The notes under the pieces are model-generated. The model saw only the letters and a list, made by a program, of their open reading frames with translations. It did not search any database and was not told the origin of the DNA. Positions 4,260 to 35,746 of a stretch of 51,728 bases of DNA are shown here, piece by piece (within the stretch, counting starts at the first letter, position 1; each line of letters opens with the position of its first letter). Both the position numbers and the translations under genes were made by a program. Source of the DNA: an uncultured Porphyromonadaceae bacterium (GTDB lineage Bacteria > Bacteroidota > Bacteroidia > Bacteroidales > Muribaculaceae); assembly GCA_947567425.1 (NCBI GenBank), contig CANOLV010000019.1, positions 1 to 51,728 on the forward strand. The letters run 5' to 3'.

Positions 4260-4267
4260 TAACTTTG
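4260..4267 (+). promoter_or_regulatory. -7 element of the beta-lactamase promoter
   Basis: TAACTTTG matches the Bacteroidota TAnnTTTG -7 element and lies 30 bp before the ATG at 4298. A start at the upstream TTG (4265) would overlap the promoter, which supports the downstream start. Confidence 0.6.
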
Positions 4268-4297
4268 CGCAATCATCACCGAAAACAGCAACTAAAA

Positions 4298-5206
4298 ATG
4301 AGAAATAACGTATTCAGTCTTTTGACCGCATTGATCTGCACTATAGCCATATCATGCACGACAAGCAACAGTACTTCATCTTTACAGCAAAAACTCTCTG
4401 ATTACGTTGACGATAAAGATGCCACAATAGGAATAGCGGTGATTGTTGACGGAAAAGACACTGTGGCGGTTAACGGAAACCGCCCCTTCCCGATGCTGAG
4501 CGTTTATAAACTACCCATAGTTTTGGCCTACGGAGATTATATCAAAGCAAGCGACAAGCTTATTCCAGACCAAATCACACTAACACATGAAGATCTAAAA
4601 CCGGACACATACAGTCCTATGCGCGACCGATATGCAGGACAAGACTCCATAACAGTCGACATAAGCGAGATTATAGCTTATGCACTTCAACAGAGCGACA
4701 ATAACGCTTCCGATATAATCCTTAAACTTATGGGAGGTGTCAACACTGCCAATAATACCGTAAAACGACTTGGAGCTGACAATATACATATCGTCTCCAC
4801 AGAAGCAGAAATGCATGAGTCGCCGGAACTTTGCTACCTGAACAGCTCTACCCCAATCGCGATGGCTCGAATGATTGATAGGTTCGACTATGAATTTGAC
4901 GACCGCTTCTCCCGTTATATAAAGCAACTTATGGAGACATGCGACACCGGCAAAAACCGTCTTGCAGCCTCGCTTTCAGGTAAAGATACCGCCATAGGCC
5001 ACAAAACCGGAACCGGGTTCACCTTACCTGACGGACGACTTATGGCTGTCAATGATGCAGGATATGTACATCTGCTCAATGGACACAGATATTCGATAGC
5101 CGTATTTATTGAAAATTCCGGATACGACATGGATCAAACCGAAAAGCTTATCGCCGATATCTCCGCCATCGTATATGCTCAACTGCAGAATGACAGCAAT
5201 ACTTGA
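4298..5206 (+). CDS. Class A beta-lactamase, subclass A2 (CfxA/CepA-like), lipoprotein
   Basis: The protein has 302 residues. All class A catalytic motifs are visible: SVYK (Ser70 and Lys73), SDN (Ser130), HKTG (KTG at 234-236), and the omega-loop segment TEAEMHESPEL, whose first glutamate aligns with Glu166. Position 170, asparagine in TEM-type enzymes, is histidine here; relatives of subclass A2 also depart from Asn at this site. The N terminus has a signal peptide with a lipobox (AISC), so the enzyme is probably lipid-anchored in the periplasm. Members hydrolyse penicillins and cephalosporins. The actual spectrum cannot be predicted from the sequence. It appears to be monocistronic and convergent with the next gene. 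Confidence 0.9.
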   Translation: MRNNVFSLLTALICTIAISCTTSNSTSSLQQKLSDYVDDKDATIGIAVIVDGKDTVAVNGNRPFPMLSVYKLPIVLAYGDYIKASDKLIPDQITLTHEDLKPDTYSPMRDRYAGQDSITVDISEIIAYALQQSDNNASDIILKLMGGVNTANNTVKRLGADNIHIVSTEAEMHESPELCYLNSSTPIAMARMIDRFDYEFDDRFSRYIKQLMETCDTGKNRLAASLSGKDTAIGHKTGTGFTLPDGRLMAVNDAGYVHLLNGHRYSIAVFIENSGYDMDQTEKLIADISAIVYAQLQNDSNT

Positions 5207-7037: not shown

Positions 7038-7805
7038 TTAATTTTTTTCTAATTGACAAGTAATTTTACAGCCATTGTTCTTGTCTGTCAGTATCATTTT
7101 AATTCTTTTCACAGGTTGAGATCTGGAAGATGATGATGCTATGCTCTTTTCCCAACCGAAATCAAAAATGTGGTCAAACATTGTCATATACTCTCCATCG
7201 CCTCCCATTGTGTATTCATAAAGAGCGAACTCTTCATCGCTTTTATGATGCAACGAAAATTCCATTGTGAATATGTTTGTATCACTGCGGGAGATATTGA
7301 AAATACCTTCTCCGACAGTCATAGGTCGGAAAGTATTGTTCTGATACCAAATCACCTTTACAGGCTTGGTATTGTCTTCATTGCGTATAAATCTTATCTC
7401 CCTCCCAACATCAAAGAACTCATTGGTATTAGTTCCATCAACTTCATTAACTCTGAAAGACAAATAGAAATCTTCAACTGTAAAATGGAGAGTGACAGTG
7501 GCTTCTGCCTTTACGTCTTTGATTGTCAGATAAGACTCTCCGGCTTTAGCAGGTTGTATGTAAAGGCTGTGGTTAGGAGCCTCCATTTCAATTCCGAATT
7601 TACCAAGTACTTCAGGATTGCTCGCAGTAAGCTCATAAACCCCACCACCACCGGTAAAATAGATTACTGCACCTTTCCCTAACATTACGGTGTAGTCTCT
7701 TTTTTCAAAGTGGATAGGAGTAATTGCATCCGGTTCATCATTATCACTACATGCTGTTACGAATAAACAGGTAAGGAGCATTACCACATTGAATATCTTG
7801 TTCAT
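7038..7805 (-). CDS. Lipoprotein of unknown function
   Basis: The 255-residue protein begins with a lipoprotein signal (MNKIFNVVMLLTCLFVTACS, lipobox VTAC). The segment after the lipobox is acidic (SDNDEPDA), a feature often seen in surface-exposed Bacteroidota lipoproteins. The body is predicted beta-rich, with an Ig-like pattern near residues 35-110 (MLGKGAVIYFTGGGGVYELT, LTIKDVKAEATVTLHFTV). No family was recognised. It lies 36 bp downstream of the outer-membrane barrel gene on the same strand, so the two are probably co-expressed and may form a complex. Confidence 0.7.
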   Translation of the reverse strand: MNKIFNVVMLLTCLFVTACSDNDEPDAITPIHFEKRDYTVMLGKGAVIYFTGGGGVYELTASNPEVLGKFGIEMEAPNHSLYIQPAKAGESYLTIKDVKAEATVTLHFTVEDFYLSFRVNEVDGTNTNEFFDVGREIRFIRNEDNTKPVKVIWYQNNTFRPMTVGEGIFNISRSDTNIFTMEFSLHHKSDEEFALYEYTMGGDGEYMTMFDHIFDFGWEKSIASSSSRSQPVKRIKMILTDKNNGCKITCQLEKN

Positions 7806-7841
7806 AGATTTACAATATTATTTTAGTCAATTGATTTGTTG

Positions 7842-9932
7842 TTATTTTAAGATTGCAGACGATCCGGCTCCGACACCACCGACTTCATTACCTCGTTTTA
7901 CCTTCTTGCCATAGCCGAACGTATATGTAACCGACAGCTGAAAACGCATGTGTTGTGCAGTACCAAACTCCCGTCGGTCAAATCGATAGTATTGGCTTGT
8001 CAATGTCTGATGATTGGTCTCCCAGCTTGAACGCAGGAAATTATATGCAGTGGCTGTAGCACGCCATGCCCCCTTCCCATATCCCAACTGAATTTGGTAA
8101 CGTGATGGGGTACGCTCCTTGATTCCAGACTCTTGGTCAGGATAAGTGCTCGGAGTCATATACCATCCGAATAGATAGAAATCTCCGAAATACCATGTCA
8201 ACTGCGCGGTGCAGGTAAGTTCGTTGTGCGTCATTGCATATTCTCCGGTGGTGCTTCTGAACCACATTTCAGGCCGAACTTTTACAATAAGTTTTCCGCC
8301 CAAGAACTTCGCCGTGCCGTTCAAGCCGATTGCACCACTGCGATAAGAGCCATTATTGACGTATTGACGCAACATCACTCCATCTGGGGCCGTGGGTGTA
8401 TAGCGGGTGACCACACGATTGTTGGCTGTATATAAACGTCCGTCAGCTTCAAGTTGCCACTTGTTGTCGGGCATCCATGTATATGATACATTAAGACCGT
8501 TTTCCCAATAATTATTAAGCCCGGGCGTGCCTGCATACCACATCAACTCGTCCTGTTGAAGCATATTCGGGCTTTTCTGATATGTGTCCGGTACAGTTTT
8601 ACCAAAGCTATATGTTGTCTCAATCTGATGATGTGGATCGGGCGAATATGTGGCATAGACATTGCCCATAGGATAATTGTCCTCGATTTTTGTTCCTGTC
8701 AAATCCGTATTAGCATAAGTCCAACCGAAAAGCGTGCCCGCCGACCAATTTTCCTCATTATGACTGTAACGTAAACCGGCCCAATATCCCCAGACATCAT
8801 AGTTCTGAGTCGAAGGAGAATTGCCGAAATAGTCAATCGTAGATTTTGAATATTCTCCGTGCATCGCAGGCATAAAACTGTTTTTATCGTCAATAGTCCA
8901 CACAAGGCATGGAGTAATCTTTGCATAATGAGAATCTTCTGTAGCGTTGTTTATGATGTTCAAAGCATCCTCGGTATAGTCTGACTTTGAATTATTGTGT
9001 CCGTATCGATATGCCGCCTCCACATTAATAGCCAAATGCTGATTGAAGCTGACATAAGTCTCAAAATCGTAGTTTAAGCCCCAACTATGATTTGAGGAAA
9101 CTGATTTTGAAAACGATGACGGAAGAAATGCGTTTGCATATACCAGTGCATTTTCCGAATTATTGCGTGGTATGGAAGTGTTATTGAACGACAGTTTGTT
9201 CGATACCTGCATATTATCAGAAGCATACAGCGCACGGAACGTAATGTCATTGGAATTATTACGATAGTGCGAAGATGTCGGTGTGGTCAATCTCTCTACA
9301 GTCTGCGCTCCTTGACCGTTAAGATCAGGGAAGTCAAAAGTCTCGACGGAGGTACTGCCGATGTGTCGGTTGGTTAGATAAATCTCATCTGCAAATATAT
9401 CAAACGTCATAGCCTTGTACACGAACTTTGAATAAACAGAAGCCTCCGAGCGGTTCACTCCAAACCATTTGTTCGCGTTGACTTTGGTATATCCGCCCCA
9501 TTCATATTTCTGCATGACGAAATTGACCACATATTGCGCTCCCCGGAACCGTGGATCTTTAGGATATAGCATATATTCCACCCTCTTTACATCTGCGGTC
9601 TGCATTCCACTTAAATCCTGAGCGGTAGCCGCCACATAATCTATGAATATAGCAACGGACTGCCCCGCCGTTGTTTTTATCGTTTTACTTGCAGGATCTA
9701 CATCCAACTGAGGTATAGCCATTTGGCTCAATAACGATACAGCATCTGTGGCCGTGTCCTTTTGACGAGCCAGCGGAATATAGGTTGAGACGGTAGATGA
9801 TGTGCGCTGATTTAGCGCCTCCACTACAACCTCGTTCAGTTCTTGTGTCTTTAACGTGTCGGCTTGTTCCTGAGCATAAACAGGGATTGTAGCAACAGCC
9901 GACAATATAGTCGACGTGATAACCTTTATCAT
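7842..9932 (-). CDS. Outer-membrane beta-barrel protein, TonB-receptor-like
   Basis: The 696-residue protein has a signal peptide ending near VYAQEQA. An N-terminal segment resembles a TonB-dependent plug (LNEVVVEALNQR, then DAVSLLSQM, and MQTADVKRVEYMLYPKDPRF), and the rest is a beta barrel ending in alternating hydrophobic/aromatic strands (MRFQLSVTYTFGYGKKVKRG). A carboxypeptidase-like N-terminal domain is absent and the plug looks degenerate. It may be a transporter, or a barrel with a different role in envelope assembly. Its promoter region carries the TCAAT-N4-ATTGA palindrome and TTTTAACGCT box shared with three other promoters in this segment. The downstream partner is a lipoprotein. 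Confidence 0.78.
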   Translation of the reverse strand: MIKVITSTILSAVATIPVYAQEQADTLKTQELNEVVVEALNQRTSSTVSTYIPLARQKDTATDAVSLLSQMAIPQLDVDPASKTIKTTAGQSVAIFIDYVAATAQDLSGMQTADVKRVEYMLYPKDPRFRGAQYVVNFVMQKYEWGGYTKVNANKWFGVNRSEASVYSKFVYKAMTFDIFADEIYLTNRHIGSTSVETFDFPDLNGQGAQTVERLTTPTSSHYRNNSNDITFRALYASDNMQVSNKLSFNNTSIPRNNSENALVYANAFLPSSFSKSVSSNHSWGLNYDFETYVSFNQHLAINVEAAYRYGHNNSKSDYTEDALNIINNATEDSHYAKITPCLVWTIDDKNSFMPAMHGEYSKSTIDYFGNSPSTQNYDVWGYWAGLRYSHNEENWSAGTLFGWTYANTDLTGTKIEDNYPMGNVYATYSPDPHHQIETTYSFGKTVPDTYQKSPNMLQQDELMWYAGTPGLNNYWENGLNVSYTWMPDNKWQLEADGRLYTANNRVVTRYTPTAPDGVMLRQYVNNGSYRSGAIGLNGTAKFLGGKLIVKVRPEMWFRSTTGEYAMTHNELTCTAQLTWYFGDFYLFGWYMTPSTYPDQESGIKERTPSRYQIQLGYGKGAWRATATAYNFLRSSWETNHQTLTSQYYRFDRREFGTAQHMRFQLSVTYTFGYGKKVKRGNEVGGVGAGSSAILK

Positions 9933-9973
9933 TATTACTTTTAGTTTATCGCTGTAAAACTATGAAAAATTTC

Positions 9974-10007
9974 TCAATCGATATTGAAAGTCAAGTATTT
10001 TAACGCT
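9974..10007 (-). promoter_or_regulatory. Shared bipartite operator, copy 1
   Basis: TCAATCGATATTGA (9974-9987, arms TCAAT/ATTGA) is followed after exactly 10 bp by TTTTAACGCT (9998-10007). It lies 42 bp upstream of the barrel gene start at 9932. The arrangement and spacing match copies 2-4, but the distance to a -7-like TAGTTTTA (minus strand, 9955-9962) is shorter than in the other copies. Confidence 0.5.
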
Positions 10008-10052
10008 GTCAGCTGTCACTTTTTCGAAATTTACACCGAGGTCAGCATTGCC

Positions 10053-11666
10053 TCATAACACATACGTAAGCATTAAATGTGCTCCAATCTGTTTGCTATG
10101 GACTCTCGGACCTACTGTCAAACCTCCTCCAGCTCTAATTTGCAGATCTTTATAACTCGTGGTTCGCCAATAAAAATCCGCTCCGGCAGTTAGGTATAAC
10201 CTTTTCCACAAACGGTATTTCAATGAAGCCTCCAAATGATTGAATGTTGAGGTTGACTTGTCACCTTGAATGTTAACCGGTTTTCCATCCGGAGTGGTCG
10301 ACCAATCCGCATTCTGGTCATAACCTTTCCATGTGTAGACTTTATATAATTGATCTGCTATGCCGACAATAAGTCTGTTTTTAAATAGATTGGCATTGAT
10401 GCCGGCTTTTATGGCGAATCCGGATCCCCAATTATAGTTGCGATGATAGTCTCTATAAAAGTCCGTCAGGATTCCGGCGAGTATCAAGCCATTGGCATGA
10501 ACATATCCATCAAATACGAAATCTTTAAAAGGAACATATTGAGCCATCAATCCGGCTCCGACAGAAGCAGGTGCACCGAGTTTGTATGGTACCACGCACG
10601 GGAACAATCGACTGCGGTCAGGTTCGTGTCTTTTGATAGTGTCGGAATCAAAGAAATCGAAATGCTGGTACATACCGACAGAAGCCCTGACATTCTTTTT
10701 GTCAACAATCTCTTTTGACAGCAGACGGCCGACAATCTCCACTCTGCTCAGGAGCGGCTGTGTCTTCATCCCCTGGATTTCCATAAGGAAGGAAAAATAG
10801 TCGTATGGTGTCCTTGTTTCATCAGCAAACTTATCGCCATATTCGATATCGATTTCAGCGGAAACACCGGCTCGTGTTCCCTCATCGTTATCCCACAAAG
10901 TGAGTATCCTTCCTCCCAATGACAACTCAACGCTTATTGGAGGAATGCCAAATCTTCTACCGGAAGTCGATCTTCGTTTCCAAGCATCCCCCGCTATTAT
11001 ACGGGTCAGTCCACGCATTGGATTGACAACGAACGCCGCCACCTCTCTGCCAAATCTTTCACCTCCGACGCTTCTGTCGTCCAGTATAAGGTCAGAGGTA
11101 CGGTATAGCACCTCACCTATGGCGGCACCTCCTACGGGAGTGGCTATTATATCGTTGGTCGATGGATACTCACATTCCATAAACATCTCCCACATTGCAC
11201 TTCCGCCAATAGCAAAAAGCTCTGATTGCCAGAAATTGAATCCATTTGAGCGCCCGGCATTGAAAAATATGCTGCCATTATATGGATGGTCAAACATGTT
11301 GGTATGGAGGTGGTCGTCATCCCATTCAAAGCCATGCCTGAAATTCTCTTTAATGCTGTTCCATGAGATATAAGCATAGTGGCCGTCAAGAACGTAACGG
11401 TCAAAAGCCCAAAGACCAATATTGAAACCGACTGTCTCGGCCCCCGCTCTCCAAAAGTGTTTCTTCTGCTGTCGCAAGACATCCGCGCTATCCGGCAATA
11501 CCGGACGACCTACAAGATGTCGGTATCCATATTCCGTAGTCCGGCCATCGCTCCGACCCAGAGGAGCCGATAATCGCACGACAGTGTCAATATCTTCTAT
11601 CTGTGTATTTTGAGCACAGATAAACAGAGGTAAAAATAATATTATTGAAATTATAATAGCTTTCAT
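10053..11666 (-). CDS. DUF3943 domain outer-membrane protein
   Basis: The 537-residue protein has a signal peptide (MKAIIISIILFLPLFICAQN). Residues 65-200 match the DUF3943 pattern: NIGLWAFDRYVL, then WDDDHLHTNMFDHPYNGSIF with FNAGRSNGFNFW, and WEMFMECEYPSTNDIIATPV. The C-terminal half consists of alternating strands typical of an outer-membrane barrel and ends MLTYVL. The biochemical role of the family is unknown. Conserved His/Asp residues in the central motif hint at metal binding, which is speculation. The upstream region has the shared palindrome and a perfect TAACTTTG -7 element, so it is probably transcribed alone but co-regulated with its neighbours. Confidence 0.8.
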   Translation of the reverse strand: MKAIIISIILFLPLFICAQNTQIEDIDTVVRLSAPLGRSDGRTTEYGYRHLVGRPVLPDSADVLRQQKKHFWRAGAETVGFNIGLWAFDRYVLDGHYAYISWNSIKENFRHGFEWDDDHLHTNMFDHPYNGSIFFNAGRSNGFNFWQSELFAIGGSAMWEMFMECEYPSTNDIIATPVGGAAIGEVLYRTSDLILDDRSVGGERFGREVAAFVVNPMRGLTRIIAGDAWKRRSTSGRRFGIPPISVELSLGGRILTLWDNDEGTRAGVSAEIDIEYGDKFADETRTPYDYFSFLMEIQGMKTQPLLSRVEIVGRLLSKEIVDKKNVRASVGMYQHFDFFDSDTIKRHEPDRSRLFPCVVPYKLGAPASVGAGLMAQYVPFKDFVFDGYVHANGLILAGILTDFYRDYHRNYNWGSGFAIKAGINANLFKNRLIVGIADQLYKVYTWKGYDQNADWSTTPDGKPVNIQGDKSTSTFNHLEASLKYRLWKRLYLTAGADFYWRTTSYKDLQIRAGGGLTVGPRVHSKQIGAHLMLTYVL

Positions 11667-11693
11667 ATAGAGTATATCTATTATTCGAATTCA

Positions 11694-11757
11694 CAAAGTT
11701 ATAGCCATTATAAATAAAAGCTCTCAACAAATGTTGAGAGCCAAGAGTTTTCACGCC
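11694..11757 (-). promoter_or_regulatory. Promoter with shared bipartite operator, copy 2
   Basis: On the minus strand, TAACTTTG (11694-11701) is a perfect -7 element. Nineteen bp further upstream lies a 20-bp perfect palindrome at 11721-11740 with core TCAACAAATGTTGA (11724-11737), then 10 bp, then TTTTCACGCC (11748-11757, the counterpart of TTTTAACGCT). The palindrome occupies the -33 position, so a bound protein would act directly on polymerase access. Confidence 0.65.
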
Positions 11758-11792
11758 GTTTGCCTATTCTTTTTTCGCGGTGACAGAAGATT

Positions 11793-12248
11793 TTAGGCAT
11801 GCGGTACAGCATAACAGATTATTGTCACGGCAATTCCGAAAATTAACCATGGCAACAATACCATGATGAATGTCAACTTGAACCCATTTTTGAAAGAATA
11901 AATTGCTTTTCGTGTCGTCAGATCCATGGATTCATACTCACGGATGGTCTGATCGATGAAAGGCGCATTCTTTATGTTGCGTATCATCAAGAAAGCGATG
12001 CCAAAGCATAAAACAAACATCATAATAATAAGTGGCAAGTTATATCTTTCCAATGAACCAAAAACTCGTGCATATAAGAAAGTAAAAATCATATAGATAG
12101 GCGCAAGGGAGAAACCTAATATACATGTCATATTAAGATATTCCTCTTTAACATCGTAGGGTTGCTTGAAATAAAATTCCGATGCAGCCATTCGCAGAAG
12201 AATCCACTGCCGGACATTATTTTTATGGAAAGTTTTCAATATGCTCAT
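11793..12248 (-). CDS. Small inner-membrane protein of unknown function
   Basis: About 151 residues from MSILKTF. Three hydrophobic segments are visible (ILGFSLAPIYMIFTFLYARV, LPLIIMMFVLCFGIAFLMI and LTFIMVLLPWLIFGIAVTII), separated by a charged stretch around DQTIREYESMDLTTRKAIYS. No family was recognised. An upstream ATG at 12275 would leave only a few bases after the TAACTTTG -7 element (12285-12292), whereas the ATG at 12248 leaves a leader similar to that of the receptor gene at 17011. It carries the shared palindrome and lies beside the crp remnant, so it probably belongs to the same regulon. Confidence 0.65.
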   Translation of the reverse strand: MSILKTFHKNNVRQWILLRMAASEFYFKQPYDVKEEYLNMTCILGFSLAPIYMIFTFLYARVFGSLERYNLPLIIMMFVLCFGIAFLMIRNIKNAPFIDQTIREYESMDLTTRKAIYSFKNGFKLTFIMVLLPWLIFGIAVTIICYAVPHA

Positions 12249-12284
12249 TTGAAAGAAAAATTTTGCGTCAAGCATTATTTAACA

Positions 12285-12348
12285 CAAAGTTACAACCAAT
12301 AAAAATAAAAACTCTCAACAAATGTTGAGGGCATAGGATTTTAACGCT
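12285..12348 (-). promoter_or_regulatory. Promoter with shared bipartite operator, copy 3
   Basis: On the minus strand: -7 element TAACTTTG at 12285-12292, a 19-bp gap, then the palindrome at 12312-12331 with core TCAACAAATGTTGA (12315-12328), 10 bp, then TTTTAACGCT (12339-12348). It drives the small membrane protein gene. Spacings are identical to copies 2 and 4. Confidence 0.65.
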
Positions 12349-12508
12349 ATCCCCTTCACTTTTTTGCAGTGGGTCTTGTTCTTTGACCGCGCACCGGCAT
12401 TGTTCCAATTCGGTCACCTACTTCGTGATCAGCCGACATACGCTACAAACCCACTCGCGAATGCTTCGCATTTCGTAGCCGACTCAAGTGCGTTGGCGTG
12501 ATATTGAG
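12286..12508. repeat. 223-bp direct repeat, left copy
   Basis: This segment is repeated at 17044-17266 with two mismatches counted by eye (221/223). On the minus strand it comprises the last 22 codons of a Crp/Fnr gene with its TAG stop (12443-12445), about 90 bp of spacer, the shared operator and part of a promoter. Homology to the crp gene continues beyond 12508, but at a lower level (DIALSLN here, DIASFLN there). Confidence 0.9.
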
Positions 12509-12526
12509 GGATAAAGCGATGTCCAT
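12443..12526 (-). pseudogene. 3' remnant of a second crp/fnr gene
   Basis: The frame reads MDIALSLNITPTHLSRLRNA then KHSRVGL and stops at 12443. It equals the recognition-helix end of the Crp/Fnr regulator at 17201-17782, apart from DIALSLN versus DIASFLN. Its ATG overlaps the stop of the upstream propeller gene (TGATG), so it could be translated as a 27-residue peptide. The cyclic-nucleotide domain is absent. It most simply represents the 3' end of a duplicated regulator gene. Confidence 0.75.
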
Positions 12527-13536
12527 CAGAATGCTTCTATGTAGATAAAGTCTTTTCCATTCCAGCCGATAATGAATTTATCGTCACTGATCGCTATTCT
12601 GTAGAGCGGCATTGGGACATTGAATAATCGGTCAACTATATTGCCGTCCCAGTCAATCTTAAAAATTGTGGATGCTGTATCATGGGCATTGGAGTATTTG
12701 AAATTCCAATGTAAAGCATAGATATTTTGTGGCGATACTGAAATGTCAACAATATGTAGTGGATTCAACTCCTCAAAGTCCGCTTCATCAAGAGTTTCAG
12801 GATTGAATGTGTCTTGTCCAATTCTAACCTGCCTTATCAACTTGCCGTCCATCCCAAATAACTCGATTATTGGATGCAGACGATAAGCAAAAGCAAGTCT
12901 GTCATACTTCTTTGAGTAGGCAAGTTCACCGGCATTAGGTAACCATGTGGTAAGTTCCGGCGATAATTGGACTATACGGATTGAATCTATTTCCACCGTT
13001 GCGACATTTGCTTTCATTGCGAACTGTTCGCCGCCATTGGGTTCACGCCCGACGAAAACATAGTTATCGGAATCAACAGATGAAATATCCTGAACATATT
13101 GAGACAGTGGAAATGGGACAGCACCGTTATCGCTAAGGATATAATTCTTGGAGCGAATGAGAATACTATCATTTACACAATTGAATATCTCACCGTCTTC
13201 CTGATTCACTACCTGCATATTGCCGTCAAGACCATAGACGGGATAAGGCATATACGCCATATAGTAGCCGTCTGACTTTTTGCCAAGCACAGGCCCGACA
13301 TCAAGTGTATTGTTATCTTGATCTATGACTGCCTTACGGAGAAAACGCTGCCCGAAGCCGTCCTCTGTTTCATATACGAACCATAGAGTATCGGCTACAG
13401 CTTTCATATCTGTGATATGTCGTATCGGCGGTAAACTATTTCCGATAAGCGTAAGCGGCTGATTTGCAGTAATGTGTGCGTTAGCAGTGCAACTTGCCAA
13501 CAACAGCATAAACAATGATAATATCGGTGTTCGCAT
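12526..13536 (-). CDS. TolB-like six-bladed beta-propeller lipoprotein (BF3164-type)
   Basis: The 336-residue protein starts with a lipoprotein signal (MRTPILSLFMLLLASC, lipobox LASC). The body shows repeated propeller-like strand patterns: DTLWFVYETEDG, YVFVGREPNG, YDRLAFAYRLHPIIELFGMD with GKLIRQVRIG, and IFKIDWDGNIVDRLFNVP. Relatives in Bacteroidales are annotated as BF3164 or 6-bladed-propeller proteins without known function. It is the last gene of the receptor-GLPGLI-propeller operon, 2 bp after the GLPGLI gene. A role in binding or processing the cargo of the receptor is a guess. Confidence 0.72.
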   Translation of the reverse strand: MRTPILSLFMLLLASCTANAHITANQPLTLIGNSLPPIRHITDMKAVADTLWFVYETEDGFGQRFLRKAVIDQDNNTLDVGPVLGKKSDGYYMAYMPYPVYGLDGNMQVVNQEDGEIFNCVNDSILIRSKNYILSDNGAVPFPLSQYVQDISSVDSDNYVFVGREPNGGEQFAMKANVATVEIDSIRIVQLSPELTTWLPNAGELAYSKKYDRLAFAYRLHPIIELFGMDGKLIRQVRIGQDTFNPETLDEADFEELNPLHIVDISVSPQNIYALHWNFKYSNAHDTASTIFKIDWDGNIVDRLFNVPMPLYRIAISDDKFIIGWNGKDFIYIEAF

Positions 13537-13538
13537 AT

Positions 13539-14396
13539 TTATCTTATTTCAAGAGGTTTATAAGGGATGGATTGTTTGGTTGCGTCTGTTGTGTCTACTT
13601 CTTTGCCATCTTTGCCAACGATGTGCATTCTGCGACTATCTCCACCTAACGAAGCAATAATGAAAGCCACAGGCGATTGGAAATACCGGACAAGAGTTTT
13701 ATCAACATCAGAGGCAGAACAGAGTTTGTCGTTGCCGTCCTGATATGAATATTGTATTATGGGCGCGTTGGATTTCTCAAAACCAACAGCCTCCCACACG
13801 AACTGCTTTTCTGAGCTCTCAATCTTTAGAATGAGTCCGGGAAGGCCTCCAAATTTGTAGGGACCAAATGGAAGTGGCAACTCCGATGTAAACCATGCGG
13901 TATATTTACGTCCGGCAAAATCGGCAGTCGCCTTGTTACATTCATAACCGAGGATGGAGGTGCTTTCTTCAGGAGAGAATTCCCATTGGATAGACGGTAC
14001 TGAATCCGTATAGACAAAGAACCCGTTGATGCCAAGGCGATATTTCATATCGGCATTGCCACCTCGCAGCGGTCTGATAATTTCCACAGGCCAAGGCATA
14101 CCCGAGACATTTGAATATGACGACGCGCCACGACGGACTTGTTCAGTGGCAAGAGAGTCGAAATGATTGATTATATCGCTGTAATCCTTTATGCTCCTTT
14201 TACCAATCTGCACGATTCGCGTATCTGTGAAGTAACCTTCCTGTTGGTCGGGATGGAATTTGTATTTCAACGAGTATGTCACCTTGTATTTGGCTGTATC
14301 TATAGGAGTCGCTTTGTCAATAAGTCGCGAACAGGTCTCCTGTGCGGATGCTGCCACACTAAGTATTGCGAACATAAGAAGAATTAGCTGTTTCAT
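13539..14396 (-). CDS. GLPGLI family exported protein
   Basis: The 285-residue protein has a signal peptide (MKQLILLMFAILSVAASAQE) and the family-defining GLPGLILKIES motif near residue 190, preceded by TAWFTSELPLPFGPYKFG. The GLPGLI family (TIGR01200) is restricted mostly to Bacteroidota. Its members are found beside TonB-receptor-like barrels, and their molecular function is unknown. Here it lies 11 bp downstream of such a barrel and 2 bp upstream of a propeller lipoprotein, so it should be part of one envelope module. Confidence 0.88.
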   Translation of the reverse strand: MKQLILLMFAILSVAASAQETCSRLIDKATPIDTAKYKVTYSLKYKFHPDQQEGYFTDTRIVQIGKRSIKDYSDIINHFDSLATEQVRRGASSYSNVSGMPWPVEIIRPLRGGNADMKYRLGINGFFVYTDSVPSIQWEFSPEESTSILGYECNKATADFAGRKYTAWFTSELPLPFGPYKFGGLPGLILKIESSEKQFVWEAVGFEKSNAPIIQYSYQDGNDKLCSASDVDKTLVRYFQSPVAFIIASLGGDSRRMHIVGKDGKEVDTTDATKQSIPYKPLEIR

Positions 14397-14407
14397 ATTT
14401 CTGAGTT

Positions 14408-17011
14408 TTAGAATATTCTGAATCTTATTTTTAGAAGGATACTTCGCGAGCGAATATTGTATATTGAGTTGGATTCGGTCAGTGCCGAACTACTCGAATA
14501 CACATATTCCTTGCGGTTGAGGAGATTGTCACATGAGAGTTTGAAGGAAAACCGTTTTATGGAATATCGCGCCTCAGCATTGAGCAAGATGAACGATTTA
14601 TCACCGTCATTGAAGTTGTTATAGTAATGATAAACGGAAGTTCGGATACTTATTCCTCCCGGCAAGTTGAAGTCCAACGTGCCTTTGTTGGTCAGTGTCT
14701 TGATCCAAGGCATCCTATCAAACCCTTTCTGACGGGACGCAGACTGGTAATACTCGCCCTCGTATGAAATTGACAGCCATTTGAACGGCGTGAGACTGAT
14801 GTCTCCGTTTACTCCTATGGCGTTGCCCGAATATCGGATAACCGTATTTTGCACAAGCAGAGGACTTGTGTAACAACTATATGACGCGGAAAGTCCGATT
14901 TTCAAGCGTCGCCAATCAAAACCTTGGCTGCCACGGATAATAGCGGAAATCATATCGGAAGTCTCGTTGGTACGTTGGCTGATGACTCGCTCTACCAAGC
15001 CGTCATAATATGAGCCATACAGCACATCCGGTTTCTGTCTGTTCCAACTGATGTCCACTCCGGCAAAACTCATTGAGAAAAGATCCTTGAAATTATACGA
15101 CAGGGAGTTGCTGAGATTAATACCCTCGAATAATCCGGCTACTTCGTATGCCGAAAGCTGACGATATGAGGTGAGGATGTAATTTGAATATAGATTCTGA
15201 ATTGAAGGCGAAGAATAATTCAGTGCGGACTTCAGACTGAGGTCGTGGTTGCTGCTGATCTTGTATGAGAAATCCAACCGAGGTTCAACCCGCACGCTGT
15301 TCTTACCTGTGCTAACATTAGTCAGTCGGTTTTTCAAATTGAAAAATCTATAACCGACAGGTATATATAGCGAGGCGTTGACCTTGCGGTAGCGCCATGC
15401 AATCTCAGCACTTATTCCGGTCGCCAGATTATCAAGGTACAAATCATTGTGTGTATCTGACAATGCACTTGTTAGGCTGTTGTGGGTATAGTTCATAAAG
15501 TAAGTGGGATGAATATTCACATTGCCAATTCTCCATGCAGAAAGTAAACCGACGCGGTTTTCAGTTGACAAATCGCGGTAATCAACATTCTGCCAGAGCA
15601 TATCTCCGTTAATCAATTCGGAGAAAAGATTCGGATTAACCGACAGACTGTGAGGTCGCTTTTCAAGATTAATCACCGAATAGATTTCATAACCACGGTA
15701 TTCCGAACTGCGGTTTGTCATGTGAAATTTGTTGAATAGACGGTATTCATCAGTTTTCCCAATCTGGACGATGTCGTCGCCTCCTGCGAAGATACGGCTG
15801 TCCGCATCGGTTGAGAACCAATCGAATTTCAATTGTTCTTTGATGTATTTGGTGTCACCATTAAGGAGATAGGTCAAATCGCCATAAGCCTTGTCGGTTC
15901 GTGAAACGCCATTCATCAGTTCATCTACAATATTCTGTGAACCATCGGGCAGAGTGTTGGCTGTATTTGAATAGCTTTGACGCGAATCACTGTCGTTTAG
16001 ATATGCGGCATTTATGCCGAATTCACCCGATTTGCCGATACGATAGACATTGTTGAAAGTCGCGCTGTGCGAGCGGTTGAAATAATAGAACCTCTTGTCA
16101 ATGCCGGGAACCGAAGGCATTGAGATGTTCGCAATGTTTGACGTGCGCGAATAGTCATTGTCAAAGGAATATAGTTCTCTCGACAAGTCCTCACCCGTAT
16201 TGTTCCCTTTGTATGTAGCAAGGAACTGGCTGGAGCGCGTGAAGTAGGTAGCGATAGCGGAATTGTTCCATAAAGCCTCATCACCATATCCTCCTCCAAG
16301 AGTGGCGATAAGGTTGAACACCCCTTTTACGCCCTCCTTCAGGCGGATATTGATGGATGCTTGTTCTTCCGGGCGCAACCCTTCGAGGGCTTTTATATCC
16401 TGATGATTTTCCAATACTTGCACGGTGGCAATGTTGTTAGGGTCAATGTTTTGAGTGGCAATGCCATAATGACCTTTCATGAGGTCAAGCCCCTCGATAT
16501 AGAAATTCTTGATCGGTTTACCTTGATATGAAACTTGACCTGATTCTGACACAGAGATTCCCGGCATTTTTTTCAGTACATCGGCAAGTGCCTGGTCATT
16601 CTGTCCGAGAAAGTTTGCCACATTGTAGTTAATAGTATCCCCATGAGAATATATCTTCTTCGATTTCACCACCACTTCTTTCAACTCAATGGCTTTATCC
16701 TCCACGATGATGTCGTATTTCCCGGAACAATTAGGTATTCTGATGGTTGTCGGAGCTATCTCAATGCTTGAGGCTTTAAGCAACAGACTATCACAGTCTG
16801 ATGATACGTTAAGAATATAACTTCCATCTTCATCTGTAAAAGTTGAAGAAAGAAATTGCTTCGGCGAATTTATAGGCAACACAACCAAGCTCGCCATATC
16901 TACACCTCGACCTTGCGAAGTTTTCACAACACCCGCTATTACTGTCCGCGCATTTGCATAGGCAGTAATAACCACAAAAGCGATAACTATTATAATGTTT
17001 AGGTACCTCAT
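14408..17011 (-). CDS. TonB-dependent receptor-like outer-membrane protein with carboxypeptidase-like domain
   Basis: The 867-residue protein has an N-terminal signal segment, a carboxypeptidase-regulatory-like beta-sandwich (residues 22-110: TVIAGVVKTSQGRGVDMASL, FTDEDGSYILNV), and a plug domain (IELKEVVVKSKKIYSHGDTI, then LADVLKKMPGISVSESGQVS and IKNFYIEGLDL). A large barrel ends LLKIRFRIF with an aromatic last residue. The plug motif D-VLKKMPGI is typical of the receptor subclass that pairs with GLPGLI proteins. It is the first gene of a three-gene operon and carries the shared operator in its promoter. The cargo is unknown. Relatives are usually described only as outer membrane beta-barrel proteins. 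Confidence 0.85.
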   Translation of the reverse strand: MRYLNIIIVIAFVVITAYANARTVIAGVVKTSQGRGVDMASLVVLPINSPKQFLSSTFTDEDGSYILNVSSDCDSLLLKASSIEIAPTTIRIPNCSGKYDIIVEDKAIELKEVVVKSKKIYSHGDTINYNVANFLGQNDQALADVLKKMPGISVSESGQVSYQGKPIKNFYIEGLDLMKGHYGIATQNIDPNNIATVQVLENHQDIKALEGLRPEEQASINIRLKEGVKGVFNLIATLGGGYGDEALWNNSAIATYFTRSSQFLATYKGNNTGEDLSRELYSFDNDYSRTSNIANISMPSVPGIDKRFYYFNRSHSATFNNVYRIGKSGEFGINAAYLNDSDSRQSYSNTANTLPDGSQNIVDELMNGVSRTDKAYGDLTYLLNGDTKYIKEQLKFDWFSTDADSRIFAGGDDIVQIGKTDEYRLFNKFHMTNRSSEYRGYEIYSVINLEKRPHSLSVNPNLFSELINGDMLWQNVDYRDLSTENRVGLLSAWRIGNVNIHPTYFMNYTHNSLTSALSDTHNDLYLDNLATGISAEIAWRYRKVNASLYIPVGYRFFNLKNRLTNVSTGKNSVRVEPRLDFSYKISSNHDLSLKSALNYSSPSIQNLYSNYILTSYRQLSAYEVAGLFEGINLSNSLSYNFKDLFSMSFAGVDISWNRQKPDVLYGSYYDGLVERVISQRTNETSDMISAIIRGSQGFDWRRLKIGLSASYSCYTSPLLVQNTVIRYSGNAIGVNGDISLTPFKWLSISYEGEYYQSASRQKGFDRMPWIKTLTNKGTLDFNLPGGISIRTSVYHYYNNFNDGDKSFILLNAEARYSIKRFSFKLSCDNLLNRKEYVYSSSSALTESNSIYNIRSRSILLKIRFRIF

Positions 17012-17042
17012 TAAACTTCATAACGATAGGTGCTAACCGATG

Positions 17043-17106
17043 TAAAGTTACAACCAATAAAAATAAGAACTCTCAACAAATGTTGAGGGCATAGGATTTT
17101 AACGCT
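17043..17106 (-). promoter_or_regulatory. Promoter with shared bipartite operator, copy 4
   Basis: On the minus strand: TAACTTTA (17043-17050, one base from the consensus -7), a 19-bp gap, palindrome 17070-17089 with core TCAACAAATGTTGA (17073-17086), 10 bp, then TTTTAACGCT (17097-17106). It precedes the receptor-GLPGLI-propeller operon and lies within the right copy of the direct repeat. Confidence 0.65.
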
Positions 17107-17266
17107 ATCCCCTTCACTTTTTTGCAGTGGGTCTTGTTCTTTGACCGCGCACCGGCATTGTTCCAATTCGGTCACCTACTTCGTGATCAGCCGACATACG
17201 CTACAAACCCACTCGCGAATGCTTCGCATTTCGTAGCCGACTCAAGTGTGTTGGCGTGATATTGAG
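17044..17266. repeat. 223-bp direct repeat, right copy
   Basis: This is the partner of 12286-12508, offset by 4758 bp, in the same orientation. The differences seen are G versus A at 17068/12310 and T versus C at 17249/12491. It spans the end of the intact crp/fnr gene, the spacer and the operator/promoter region of the receptor operon. The two copies could recombine and excise or duplicate the 4.76-kb unit between them. Confidence 0.9.
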
Positions 17267-17782
17267 AAATGAGGCTATGTCTTTCAACGAAAAGAGGTCA
17301 AATAAATATGGATATCTGCCTATGAGTTCTTCATACCGTCGCTGCGGAGACTTGCAATACAAATCAATATATCGGTCATATACAGTAGTATATACCTCCT
17401 CGGTGGAATGCATCACAACATCCCTAAAATGAAGATCGGAGTCCATCATTTCCTTTACGGTCTTGGAAGGGATGCAGTATATTTCACAATCCACTACAGC
17501 AACAATAGCCAATTTCGCTTCCTTACCGTACAAACAGAACGGCCAATCGGCAACAAATCCATTGCCAAACACCAGGCCCATAACATGCTCGGTTCCGTCA
17601 ACTGAATATGCCACATATTTGAGTGCTCCCGACACGATATATCCTATATAACTGCCAACCTTACCGATTGACACAAATTCATCACCTTTGGCATAGCGTC
17701 GCAGAGTGCCCTTGCTGACGCAAGCCTCGCGCCAAGCCTCAAAATCAATATGTTCAATATATGTATTAAAATTGTCAGACAT
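17201..17782 (-). CDS. Crp/Fnr family transcriptional regulator
   Basis: The 193-residue protein has an N-terminal cyclic-nucleotide-binding-like domain (FVSIGKVGSYIGYIVSGALK and GFVADWPFCLYGK) and a C-terminal winged helix (RYEELIGRYPYLFDLFSLKD, IASFLNITPTHLSRLR). There is no N-terminal cysteine cluster, so it is not an Fnr-type iron-sulfur sensor. The ligand is unknown. The last nine residues (NAKHSRVGL) and the recognition helix lie within the 223-bp repeat. The divergent start has a perfect TACCTTTG -7 element 18 bp before the ATG. By proximity it is the obvious candidate to bind the four palindromic operators downstream, but this is inference. Confidence 0.87.
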   Translation of the reverse strand: MSDNFNTYIEHIDFEAWREACVSKGTLRRYAKGDEFVSIGKVGSYIGYIVSGALKYVAYSVDGTEHVMGLVFGNGFVADWPFCLYGKEAKLAIVAVVDCEIYCIPSKTVKEMMDSDLHFRDVVMHSTEEVYTTVYDRYIDLYCKSPQRRYEELIGRYPYLFDLFSLKDIASFLNITPTHLSRLRNAKHSRVGL

Positions 17783-31681: not shown

Positions 31682-32596
31682 ATGAACAGACTTGCATTCT
31701 TAGCCTTGACCCTTGCACTCGCCGGTGCAACGAGCGCTGATGCCCAAACCGACGCTTATATAAAGCTTAACGACAAAGCCGGGAAGCACCCAAGGGTATT
31801 GTCCATATCCTTTCCGGGCGACGCCGACAATCTCGATATGTACAACAGCATCTATGGACATGGAGCCGTAATCGAAAATCCATGGGTGGCCTACCGTATC
31901 TATATGGACAACAGGCAAAGCCTCGACCTATACGTGAAACAGACTCCACAGATCGAGCTTGATGTCACAGGCTTCTATACCACCCCCGAACAACTGTCAG
32001 ATGGATATGGTTGCGATGTGCTATGGGCAGGGAAATCGATAGCGGCCGGTTCATTCCGTGGTTGGCGTGATCGAAAGCTATTCACCATCGATGATGTGAG
32101 CGAGAGGAGCCAGACCGTGATTTCTCCCGACAGTGTAGTCGTAACAGATAAAGGATGGCGATTCAACGGCCATGACATCGACATGACACAAACATATACC
32201 GTGGAGGGGGAATCAGAGATTTTATCGGTTACAGTGAAACTCAATGGATATAAACCCGACGACTTATTCTGCACCGGAATCCAAAAGCTTGAGATCGACA
32301 ATTCCGGATTTATAGATTCCGAAGGCTATGCGGCTTCATTCGGACAAAATATGCCGGACAAAAATATGCCGGAAATAGTGGAGACTGTGGCCCTCGGCAT
32401 CGTGGTAAATCCCGAAAACATAGTAAAGTCCTATGAAGATGACCTTAACTACGTATTCGTGGTTCGGCCTGACAGAGACGGACTCATCTCATATAAAGTA
32501 ATAGCGTCAGGCTCACGTGCGAACGGATTCGACCCTACTCCTGCCAACTGGTTCAACAAAGTACGCGCCGATTTCCACAAATTCCATCGCCATTGA
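31682..32596 (+). CDS. DUF4861 family exported protein
   Basis: The 304-residue protein has a signal peptide (MNRLAFLALTLALAGATSAD) and the DUF4861 pattern: HGAVIENPWVAYRIYMDNRQ, DLYVKQTPQIELDV, GYGCDVLWAGKSIAAGSFRG and SGSRANGFDPTPANWF. Members occur next to pectin-degrading enzymes in Bacteroides and some may act as glycosidases or carbohydrate-binding proteins, but their activity is uncharacterised. Here it closes the operon, 68 bp after GH105 and before a strong terminator. Confidence 0.85.
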   Translation: MNRLAFLALTLALAGATSADAQTDAYIKLNDKAGKHPRVLSISFPGDADNLDMYNSIYGHGAVIENPWVAYRIYMDNRQSLDLYVKQTPQIELDVTGFYTTPEQLSDGYGCDVLWAGKSIAAGSFRGWRDRKLFTIDDVSERSQTVISPDSVVVTDKGWRFNGHDIDMTQTYTVEGESEILSVTVKLNGYKPDDLFCTGIQKLEIDNSGFIDSEGYAASFGQNMPDKNMPEIVETVALGIVVNPENIVKSYEDDLNYVFVVRPDRDGLISYKVIASGSRANGFDPTPANWFNKVRADFHKFHRH

Positions 32597-32629
32597 ACAA
32601 TTCCTAAAACCGCCTCTCCATAATTGAAA

Positions 32630-32668
32630 AGAGGCTGCGCCTATTTTGACACAGCCTCTCTAATTTTT
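32630..32668 (+). terminator. Terminator of the rhamnogalacturonan operon
   Basis: AGAGGCTG (32630-32637) pairs with CAGCCTCT (32652-32659), followed by TAATTTTTTC. A third segment, GCCTCT at 32612-32617, can pair with the same AGAGGC, giving an alternative hairpin just upstream. Confidence 0.75.
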
Positions 32669-32700
32669 TCACCACTCAAAAATTTTTAGCGGACAGTAAT

Positions 32701-32925
32701 ATATTTCTTATCTCCAGTGGTAAAAATTATCGGAGAATCATAGATACCCCTAATGGCTTTTACTTTGATAAAGACAGCTATACCATGTCCTATATGGCTA
32801 GTAAGAAGATGATAATCCCTTTTCCCCAGAAATGGAAACTAGATTAGCTAAATTTTGAAGAGTTGGTATCTATGTTTGAAGGGAATGAGGAATATGATAT
32901 AACAGCAGAATATTTCCCCCACTAA
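32701..32925 (+). pseudogene. Degraded reading frame with an in-frame amber codon
   Basis: One frame stays open over 75 codons apart from TAG at 32845-32847: SGKNYRRIIDTPNGFYFDKD, then SYTMSYMASKKMIIPFPQKW, a stop, and LNFEELVSMFEGNEEYDITA ending EYFPH. No start codon is seen upstream of 32788. The composition looks like real protein. The family is not recognised. It is probably the tail of an acquired gene in an AT-rich segment. Confidence 0.45.
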
Positions 32926-32944
32926 ATATAAAGGGAAATAAAGC

Positions 32945-32975
32945 AAAAGCTCCAACTGATTAGGCTGGAGCTTTT
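32945..32975. terminator. Bidirectional terminator hairpin
   Basis: AAAAGCTCCA (32945-32954) pairs with TGGAGCTTTT (32966-32975), with an 11-nt loop and A/T tracts on both sides. It lies between the degraded frame and the convergent frameshifted gene. Confidence 0.7.
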
Positions 32976-33015
32976 ATATTGTTGGAGAAAAAGAATGTTA
33001 TAGATTTTCCTTCGG

Positions 33016-33590
33016 TTAAACGATTATAACGGATATGTAGAATTGAGGGATAGCACCATATTCATTATACATTTCCGGCATACCAGTTTCAGAGCTAATG
33101 TCTAGTGTCTTTTTTATTTCTATCTCTATGATATTACCATTGGTGGACTTCCAAAGTAATCTATCTTCTCTTTCTATCTGAGGTGTGCCATACTTTGCAA
33201 CCAAATCAGATTTAAGCGATGCAAGTATTTGGTTTACCTTATAGCGGTTGTTGGTTAACCATTGCTCTGCCTGCTTATAAGTTAGATGTGTTGTAAAAGC
33301 ATCTTCATATTGAATAGCCTTATTGAACACAACCATTTTGAATCGGTCGTTATCAAAGAAAAAGCAGCAACCATCAAAATTCTCAGAAGCAAATCTAACA
33401 GACCCCTCTAGAACGATGTTAGTTGGCGAAGTCAGTACATCAGAACTCTTAACACCGCGAGAGATTAGTTTTGATGCAACGGTATTCATTGAGGAATTGA
33501 AGTCAATCCCCCAAGACCCGTTATTTGATTCTGAGCTATAGAAGTCAAACAACTGATAATTAGAAGTATCGGAAATAGGAACTTTTTCAT
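33016..33590 (-). pseudogene. Secreted protein gene frameshifted at a G5 tract
   Basis: From the ATG at 33590 the frame gives a clear signal peptide (MKKFLFPILLIISCLTSIAQ) and stops soon after. The mature part is in another frame (GIDFNSSMNTVASKLISRGV to a C terminus FYISVIIV at 33016). The two frames meet at CCCCC on the plus strand (33508-33512, G5 in the gene). One extra G would join them into a protein of about 191 residues (NQITGLGGIDFNSS). The tract may be a phase switch, a mutation or a sequence error. No family was recognised; the domain holds several acidic and aromatic residues (CCFFFDNDRFKMVVFN). Confidence 0.65.
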
Positions 33591-33620
33591 TACAATATTT
33601 CTAGGTCATTTGGGTTCAGC

Positions 33621-33992
33621 TTAGAAGTAAACAGTCAAGCTACTAGTGTTATATCCGGTGCTGATGTGAAGAGTTGCTTTCTGGTTGAACTCTCTAGCCA
33701 TTTCACCATCAAATGTAGAGTTGGTGCGTGTAATGCTAGCAGGTGTTTGTACGTTGTGCCAGTTTTCATTACCAACATAGTCTTTACCAGTAGAGTAAGC
33801 AACAACATGGCTTCCTTTGATTTTGATTTTGATAGAAGCTAACTGACCGTTTGAAACATAGTAAGCTCTTACTACCTGCTCACGGTTGTTGTACTGAGCA
33901 AGCAACATTGAACCATCATTAGAAGCAGGTTCATAAGCGAAGGTTGCTAAAGAGCATACAAGCAACCCTGCCATTAAAAGCATCTTTTTCAT
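33621..33992 (-). CDS. Small secreted protein of unknown function
   Basis: The 123-residue protein has a clear signal peptide (MKKMLLMAGLLVCSLATFAY) and a mature part of about 100 residues, predicted as beta strands (REQVVRAYYVSNGQLASIKI, KIKGSHVVAYS and TLHISTGYNTSSLTVYF). No cysteine occurs after the signal. No family was recognised. It follows a long leader with many inverted repeats and lies 30 bp before the frameshifted secreted-protein gene on the same strand, so both may form one operon of secreted proteins. Confidence 0.65.
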   Translation of the reverse strand: MKKMLLMAGLLVCSLATFAYEPASNDGSMLLAQYNNREQVVRAYYVSNGQLASIKIKIKGSHVVAYSTGKDYVGNENWHNVQTPASITRTNSTFDGEMAREFNQKATLHISTGYNTSSLTVYF

Positions 33993-34315
33993 ATTGCTTT
34001 TGATTAGTGTGCTTCACAATCCCGATAAAGCAGTTACTTGTTGGATAAAGAAAAGGTGTGGGATTGTACCTGCTTTATCCGGTGATAGGCTTCTAGCATT
34101 GCCTTAGATAGTGATAAAACAGCAAACCCACACCGATAAAGCTATGCAGATACCCCTAAAGGGGTAGGTACAAGCTACCGATGCAGATGCTATTTGTGCT
34201 TATCTTACTATCTATGAGGAAATTTTGCTAGAATTTATCACAGAAGATAACTCAAATAACACCCTTTCAGATGTATGAGCCTACTCTAAGGCTCTATTTT
34301 TCAAGTGCAAAGATA
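33993..34315 (-). promoter_or_regulatory. Promoter and structured leader upstream of the small secreted protein
   Basis: On the minus strand a perfect TATCTTTG -7 element (34308-34315) faces left. Transcription from it would give a leader of about 315 nt before the ATG at 33992. The leader has several paired segments: GAGCCT/AGGCTC (34278-34295), TAGATAGT/ACTATCTA (34105-34112 and 34207-34214), TACCCC/GGGGTA (34151-34166), GGTGTGGG/CCCACACC (34055-34062 and 34127-34134), GATAAAGCAG/CTGCTTTATC (34024-34033 and 34070-34079) and ACAATCCC/GGGATTGT (34016-34023 and 34060-34067). The last two interleave, as in a pseudoknot. It could be a regulatory leader, a separate ncRNA or a DNA recognition site. 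Confidence 0.45.
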
Positions 34316-34384
34316 CGAAATATATCTGAGATAAGGCTACTGAGATGAAGAGAAATAGCTAACTTTTTAGATAAATTTGATATT

Positions 34385-34835: not shown

Positions 34836-34847
34836 ACTCTAAACTCT

Positions 34848-35441: not shown

Positions 35442-35644
35442 TTTAGCTTCTTATTTTACATAGTTAGACATTTTTCGTGTATTCTGCAAGCCATCTTCAT
35501 TTATTTTATGCAATTTAATATTTCATATAGTCCGAGCGGGATCAAAAATCTATTCGACGCTTTATGACAGCCGGCAATTCTCATATCCGATATTAATTCT
35601 TAATAGTTTACTTTAGCATTTTTTCATCAACCTACTGTGGATTA

Positions 35645-35728: not shown

Positions 35729-35746
35729 TTAAAAAAGTAAAGTATT

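What the first reader, a model, noticed from the sequence alone, without database searches (positions are those of the whole stretch)
12286..17266. Receptor-GLPGLI-propeller operon bracketed by 223-bp direct repeats
12286-12508 and 17044-17266 are 221/223 identical by eye, in direct orientation, and hold the three-gene operon between them (period 4758 bp). Each repeat carries the end of a crp gene plus an operator/promoter. A crossover between repeats would remove the operon and place the intact crp directly in front of the small membrane protein gene, or could duplicate the operon. The near identity suggests a recent event or ongoing gene conversion. Amplification or loss could make the surface barrel variable between cells.
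Basis: partly seen in the sequence, partly recalled or inferred. Interest (0 to 1): 0.7.

Follow-up and report, generated by a model that had tools for sequence, protein, structure and literature searches.

The report
Regulator-anchored stack of surface-protein gene cassettes
A gut bacterium carries a regulator gene followed by several surface-protein gene sets that share one switch sequence, and the long repeat noticed here is a copy of the regulator's tail plus that switch, probably left when one gene set was slotted in beside the regulator.

Summary
The repeat is real: 12286-12508 and 17044-17266 are 221/223 identical, direct, 4,758 bp apart. On the minus strand each copy holds the last 22 codons of a CRP/FNR-type gene, a repeat-like spacer, and a promoter with the palindrome CTCAACAWWTGTTGAG. 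Copy 2 ends the intact crp (17201-17782); copy 1 ends a crp remnant abutting the preceding gene's stop codon. In the 2.92-Mb assembly the palindrome (0-1 mismatch) occurs only three times, all in this island. In relatives it follows 51 of 77 CRP homologs (shuffled: 1 of 77), usually 29 nt before the -7 box, and its bases vary with the CRP recognition helix. The receptor-GLPGLI operon has no ortholog in the 13 other genus members searched, but 67-79% orthologs in ten genomes of other genera. Other islands repeat the crp 3' end before distal operators. Best reading: the operon was inserted at the crp 3' end, duplicating the crp-tail/operator joint, in an island built of crp-tail + operator + cargo units. 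Present-day loss or amplification is possible but untested.

The parts
17201..17782 (-). CRP/FNR-type regulator, 193 aa; C-terminal tail NAKHSRVGL lies in the repeat-like element
   Evidence: Pfam cNMP_binding 40.9 bits (cut-off 27.5) and weak HTH_17; profile A1 hits 3dn7 at 3e-10
17044..17266 (-). repeat copy 2: crp 3' end (17201-17266), element, operator, promoter of the TBDT867 operon
12286..12508 (-). repeat copy 1: crp 3' remnant, element, operator, promoter in front of SMP160
12443..12526 (-). crp 3' remnant (LMDIALSLNITPTHLSRLRNAKHSRVGL), no upstream crp; abuts the stop codon of 12526-13536
12366..12459 (-). repeat-like element in copy 1 with imperfect terminal inverted repeats (by eye); approximate ends
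   Evidence: similar DNA in G004, G005, G011
17124..17217 (-). same element in copy 2; approximate ends
17072..17087 (-). operator 1 CTCAACATTTGTTGAG
12314..12329 (-). operator 2 CTCAACATTTGTTGAG
11723..11738 (-). operator 3 CTCAACATTTGTTGAG
17043..17050 (-). -7 box TAACTTTA, 29 nt from operator centre
   Evidence: box consensus recalled
12285..12292 (-). -7 box TAACTTTG, 29 nt from operator centre
   Evidence: box consensus recalled
11694..11701 (-). -7 box TAACTTTG, 29 nt from operator centre
   Evidence: read directly; box consensus recalled
11692..11756 (-). third promoter/operator copy; the sequence before its operator matches a crp tail consensus at 19/30 (0 of 300 shuffles as good)
14408..17011 (-). 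TBDT867: TonB-dependent-receptor-like protein, 867 aa
   Evidence: Plug 20.2 bits, below cut-off 23.9; orthologs in other genera
13539..14396 (-). GLPGLI family protein, 285 aa
   Evidence: TIGR01200 165.7 bits, cut-off 50
12526..13536 (-). PROP, 336 aa, putative propeller (label not confirmed)
   Evidence: no Pfam/NCBIfam match; orthologs behind TBDT867 in other genera
11793..12275 (-). SMP160, small protein, 160 aa, cargo of operator 2
   Evidence: no Pfam/NCBIfam match; homologs in 5 of 197 other family genomes
10053..11666 (-). DUF3943 protein, 537 aa, cargo of operator 3
   Evidence: Pfam DUF3943 133 bits; directly behind CRP and operator in G110 and G194
7842..9932 (-). TBDT696, 696 aa; homologs are the commonest cargo directly behind CRPs
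   Evidence: no Pfam match
7038..7805 (-). 255-aa protein; homologs lie in the CRP islands of G046 and G222

Best explanation
The island 7038-17782 is a local regulon made of units, each consisting of a crp 3' tail, an operator-promoter and cargo. The intact CRP/FNR-type protein binds the palindrome CTCAACAWWTGTTGAG, whose centre lies 29 nt before the -7 box (about -41), the place of a class II activator, and switches on three cargo units: TBDT867-GLPGLI-PROP, SMP160, and DUF3943-TBDT696. The 223-bp repeat is the joint: the TBDT867 operon was inserted between crp and its earlier target, so that the crp tail plus operator now exists twice, once on intact crp and once as a remnant after PROP. 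The topology fits single-crossover (Campbell-type) integration of a molecule carrying crp-tail, operator and cargo, or an equivalent homologous event. The near identity of the copies then needs a near-identical donor or later gene conversion, because crp-like sequence just outside the block is clearly diverged. SHOWN: the repeat, the remnant, three operators only in this island, operator next to CRP in most homologs, helix-operator association, patchy distribution of the operon, repeated crp tails in other islands. INFERRED: binding, activation rather than repression, insertion as the direction of the event, and the molecular route.
For: Repeat and remnant. Operator within 60 nt before to 200 nt after the CRP match end at <=3 mismatches in 51 of 77 non-redundant CRP loci, against 1 of 77 after mononucleotide shuffling (one more row dropped for a short flank); of those 51, 39 have the -7 box at 29 nt, 3 at 28 or 30, 9 no consensus box there (recount). 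Whole assembly: 3 palindrome sites, all here, reversed-pattern control 0. Helix-operator association among 44 CRPs with a recognised operator and helix: Tyr in the helix goes with a changed inner base pair in 9 of 9, His in 1 of 35; Gln goes with outer A in 6 of 6 against 2 of 38. TBDT867: no ortholog in the 13 other genus genomes (five have 27-30% paralogs at E<=1e-60, eight nothing at that cut-off), 67-79% orthologs in ten genomes of other genera, behind a CRP-like gene in five loci read. DUF3943 directly behind CRP and operator in G110 and G194. DNA scan for a second crp 3' end in 50 loci with >=3 kb downstream: 7 same-strand hits in 4 loci (window, L250, L253, L204), 0 opposite-strand. Of 15 operators not behind a recognisable CRP tail, 6 have the crp-tail consensus before them at p<=0.01, among them the window's third operator and three in G046; L250 shows two further crp tails, each directly before an operator. 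PROP orthologs end within a few codons of the window's PROP.
Against: 26 of 77 CRP loci have no such palindrome at <=3 mismatches. The tree-corrected helix test has only 4 independent pairs (3 same way, 0 opposite, 1 no difference; p 0.25), and 80 rows shrank to 44 after keeping recognised operators. 9 of 15 distal/orphan operators show no crp-tail match, and the GTTAAAATCC part could be kept as a promoter element rather than a relic. CRPs next to TBDT867 elsewhere are only 53-58% (one 35%) like this CRP and those read lack the element, so the cassette did not arrive as one unchanged block. A simple crossover between diverged copies would not give 221/223. In other genomes the palindrome also occurs away from CRP (G110, G207). 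No recombinase was recognised in the 29 window proteins scanned.
Confidence: 0.7

Rival explanations
1. The repeat pair is a working switch: RecA-type crossover between the 223-bp copies removes or multiplies the operon, making surface barrels vary between cells.
For: Direct, 99% identical, 4.76 kb apart; the product would be crp-operator-SMP160, a regulated unit.
Against: No reads, no second strain of the species, no junction of the deleted or duplicated form seen; the genome collections hold one genome per species. The repeat is explained by the insertion itself.
Confidence: 0.15
2. Two crp genes once stood here, each with its own cargo, and most of the second crp was lost by deletion; gene conversion then homogenised the joint. 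No insertion at crp occurred.
For: Serial CRP genes occur in relatives: G065, G122, G179, and a truncated second CRP in G194; the remnant's outer edge is a diverged crp sequence.
Against: The remnant begins at the last codons of PROP, so the deletion would have to end there; short crp tails before several operators in G046 and L250 would need repeated deletions of the same kind.
Confidence: 0.2
3. The palindrome is read by another protein or works as a repressor site; its place next to crp is incidental.
For: One genome has the operator before TBDT867 with an MFS gene, not crp, upstream (G183); G005 has one site but no CRP match at E<=1e-45.
Against: 51 of 77 adjacency against 1 of 77 shuffled, helix-operator association, and a CRP paralog with its own palindrome ATAAACATTTGTTTAT at the same 29-nt spacing. 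Repression as such is not excluded.
Confidence: 0.15
4. Assembly artefact: the real genome has crp-repeat-SMP160 plus a 4.76-kb circle or another arrangement.
For: The two mismatches that tell the copies apart are 182 nt apart, so short single reads cannot phase them; the assembly is a 57-contig draft.
Against: CRP directly before TBDT867 is seen independently in G162, G062, G173 and G219, and repeated crp tails occur in other assemblies.
Confidence: 0.07

Closest known systems
Genomic islands inserted at the 3' end of a host gene (tRNA-type sites; recalled)
   Same: intact gene at one end, 3' fragment of the same gene in direct orientation at the other end
   Different: no integrase recognised in the 4.76-kb unit or in the 29 window proteins scanned; the duplicated stretch also carries the operator and promoter that drive the cargo
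CRP/FNR-family regulators, including the proposed global Crp BT4338 of Bacteroides (PMC3878776, passages seen)
   Same: cNMP-binding plus HTH protein, palindromic site containing AACA/TGTT
   Different: BT4338 is proposed to bind wwwTATGTTnTAnAACATAwww in up to 30 carbohydrate genes per genome; here three sites beside the gene and a different palindrome
Integron gene-cassette or CRISPR-spacer arrays (recalled)
   Same: possible stacking of units next to a fixed leader
   Different: no integrase, attC or CRISPR parts recognised; several-gene units; joints are regulator-gene tails
BlaI/BlaR1-type regulator pairs in front of the same TBDT867-GLPGLI-PROP operon (L096)
   Same: local regulator directly upstream of the same cargo
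   Different: different regulator family; no crp-type palindrome seen there

Membership tests
CRP/FNR-family regulator | N-terminal cyclic-nucleotide-binding-type domain | tested here: met
   PF00027 40.9 bits, cut-off 27.5
CRP/FNR-family regulator | C-terminal HTH | tested here: inconclusive
   HTH_17 20.2 bits below cut-off 27; profile alignment to 3dn7 over positions 26-186; conserved ITPTHLSRLR helix
CRP/FNR-family regulator | binds a palindrome upstream of its targets | tested here: inconclusive
   comparative support only; no binding assay
CRP/FNR-family regulator | cAMP or other ligand | not testable with these tools
   no ligand data
Integrase-type island in a gene 3' end | direct repeat of the gene's 3' end at both ends of the insert | tested here: met
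Integrase-type island in a gene 3' end | encoded integrase/recombinase | tested here: not met
   none recognised in the operon nor in the 29 window proteins scanned
Phase-variable locus | alternative forms in one strain | not testable with these tools
   no reads
Composite transposon or repeat pair | flanking repeats that are mobile elements found elsewhere in the genome | tested here: not met
   whole block found only in this window of its own assembly; only a sub-part resembles dispersed DNA of other species

The most novel reading that the evidence does not exclude
A regulator gene whose 3' end is an acceptor site for surface-gene cassettes: each incoming cassette brings a crp tail and operator and lands next to crp, pushing older cassettes outward with decaying crp-tail relics. 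The result is a polar, history-keeping array of co-regulated, exchangeable outer-membrane genes, and the 223-bp repeat marks the latest addition.
Probability: 0.4. Interest if true: 0.78.

Novelty: new variant of a known kind. Interest (0 to 1): 0.6.

Why it matters
If right, it shows how abundant gut Bacteroidota (Muribaculaceae) change their surface: cargo is plugged into a ready-made local regulator because operator and regulator tail travel together. The helix-operator pairs give a testable specificity code for a CRP subfamily, and crp-tail relics give a marker for reading the order of past insertions. The cargo classes do not follow the CRP tree (17 changes, shuffled mean 17.4), as free exchange predicts.

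Tried and rejected
Dispersed mobile repeat or composite transposon: the whole block occurs only here in its assembly; only the element part resembles DNA in G004, G005 and G011. Crp terminator hairpin: weak fold (-34.2 against a mononucleotide-shuffled mean of -30.1, s.d. 3.3), no T-run looked for further. Known RNA family: no Rfam hit in the window. Polarity (crp-near joints younger): the window (99% over 223 bp, then 77-83% over 65 bp) and L250 (95% over 42 nt, then 86% over 28 nt) agree, but G046/L253 is nearly flat (75, 75, 73%), so it is kept only as the novel reading. Cargo shuffle test: observed 17 changes equals chance (482 of 1000 shuffles as low or lower), which fits free exchange but also a poorly resolved tree (37 of 77 inner branches starred). 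Cargo labels of 46 of 80 rows were set by hand; the two 'SMP' rows (L246, L253) have other ORFs before SMP160. The tree was built with the HTH columns left in. Receptor against solved structures: no hit. Papers: searches gave no report of this arrangement in the listings seen; only passages of PMC3878776 were read, other papers only as listings with abstract starts.

Full report
Observation. 12286-12508 and 17044-17266 are 221/223 identical in direct orientation, 4,758 bp apart, and the sequence is found nowhere else in its 2.92-Mb, 57-contig assembly. A third copy of only the promoter part lies at 11692-11756. The genes in and around the repeats, 7038 to 17782, are all on the minus strand.

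Anatomy. Read on the minus strand, copy 2 starts in the last 22 codons of a CRP/FNR-type gene (17201-17782; Pfam cNMP_binding). It goes on through a spacer of about 95 bp that resembles DNA scattered in other species of the genus and ends at the -7 box of a promoter carrying CTCAACATTTGTTGAG. Copy 1 has the same order, but the crp part is a remnant. Its homology with crp runs about 20 bp further and is diverged there, and it stops at the stop codon of the gene 12526-13536. Orthologs of that gene end within a few codons of the same place, so the joint lies in its last codons. After the -7 box the two copies share nothing.

The palindrome belongs to this CRP. In the whole assembly it occurs three times at 0-1 mismatch, all in this island (reversed-pattern control 0). 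In 20 relatives picked by me it occurs 35 times in total against 4 for the reversed pattern; 17 of 20 have at least one. Of 77 non-redundant CRP-homolog loci, 51 have it (<=3 mismatches) next to the CRP end, against 1 of 77 shuffled stretches; 39 of those 51 have the -7 box exactly 29 nt from its centre. If the -7 box lies where its name says (consensus recalled), the centre is near -41, the class II activator position (recalled for CRP/FNR). The operator changes with the recognition helix: Tyr instead of His goes with a changed inner base pair in 9 of 9 against 1 of 35, and Gln goes with outer A in 6 of 6 against 2 of 38. A paralog with helix ITPIHLSRIR is followed by ATAAACATTTGTTTAT at the same spacing. 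Tree-corrected support is in the same direction but small: 4 independent pairs, 3 concordant, 0 opposite, 1 tie, p 0.25. 26 of 77 loci lack the palindrome.

Cargo. TBDT867-GLPGLI-PROP has no ortholog in the 13 other genus genomes searched (27-30% paralogs in five, nothing at E<=1e-60 in eight) but 67-79% orthologs in ten genomes of other genera, with weaker or fragmentary ones in three more. There it sits behind a CRP-like gene in G025, G162, G062, G173 and G219, or behind a pair identified as BlaI/BlaR1-type in G061 (L096); similar-sized pairs stand before it in G184, G182, G016 and G113 (size only). DUF3943 stands directly behind CRP and operator in G110 and G194. SMP160 stands in CRP islands of G065 and G046. 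TBDT696-like genes are the commonest CRP-proximal cargo (28 of 46 rows classified by hand). So this island strings together cargo that elsewhere sits behind single CRPs. The cargo classes do not follow the CRP tree (17 changes; shuffled mean 17.4; 482 of 1000 shuffles as low).

The crp tail as a joint. A DNA scan for a second crp 3' end in the 50 loci with at least 3 kb downstream gave 7 same-strand hits in four loci (window, L250, L253, L204) and none on the other strand. L250 has two crp tails, each directly before an operator. In L204 (G222) an IS transposase gene and a 253-aa cargo gene lie between crp and a duplicate of its last 50 bp followed by the operator. Of 15 operators not behind a recognisable CRP tail, 6 are preceded by a crp-tail match at p<=0.01, including three in G046 (26, 29 and 28 of 30) and the window's third operator (19 of 30, 0 of 300 shuffles); 9 are not. 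G065 carries on another contig a paralog's crp remnant before a double operator. The duplication seen here is therefore not unique, and all three operators in the window bear a crp tail or its trace.

Mechanism. I take it that the operon was inserted between crp and SMP160 by recombination in the crp tail/operator region. Single-crossover integration of a molecule with crp-tail, operator and cargo gives the observed order, with the new cargo next to crp and a remnant behind it. That alone does not give 99% identity between copies whose edges are diverged, so a near-identical donor or later gene conversion is also needed. The direction (insertion rather than loss of a second crp) rests on the patchy distribution and the relatives. 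Whether CRP activates or represses is inferred from spacing only.

Taxonomy. By equal contig lengths, the genus holds Heminiphilus faecis AM35 and MAGs labelled Muribaculum, so the window is most likely Muribaculum in the broad (GTDB) sense, family Muribaculaceae (inference; record labels of MAGs vary).

Limits. No strains of the same species, no reads, no binding data. 'Propeller' and 'receptor' are weakly supported labels. The two mismatches are 182 nt apart, so a short-read mis-join cannot be excluded from sequence alone.

Noticed in passing
12366-12459 and 17124-17217; L021 5480-5580; L018; L017: Repeat-like intergenic element with imperfect terminal inverted repeats, scattered in G004, G005 and G011. 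At the crp 3' end it gives the protein the tail NAKHSRVGL, shared by window, G065 and G194 CRPs.
   Followed up: partly
L133 9750-10313 (G065): A second CRP paralog (36%) stands between the CRP and the SMP160 operator, followed by its own palindrome ATAAACATTTGTTTAT with the same 29-nt spacing.
   Followed up: partly
L096 10940-12651 and similar loci: The same TBDT867-GLPGLI-PROP operon stands behind a BlaI/BlaR1-type pair instead of CRP in some genomes: swap of regulator family in front of one cargo.
   Followed up: partly
4265-5206: Protein with a Beta-lactamase2 domain (92.4 bits) close to the island; activity unknown.
   Followed up: no
47594-50461: C-5 cytosine DNA methylase and Vsr-type mismatch endonuclease genes, with an ORF between them not scanned.
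   Followed up: no
32000-36000: Lower G+C stretch (0.37-0.40) with a uracil-DNA-glycosylase-like gene.
   Followed up: no
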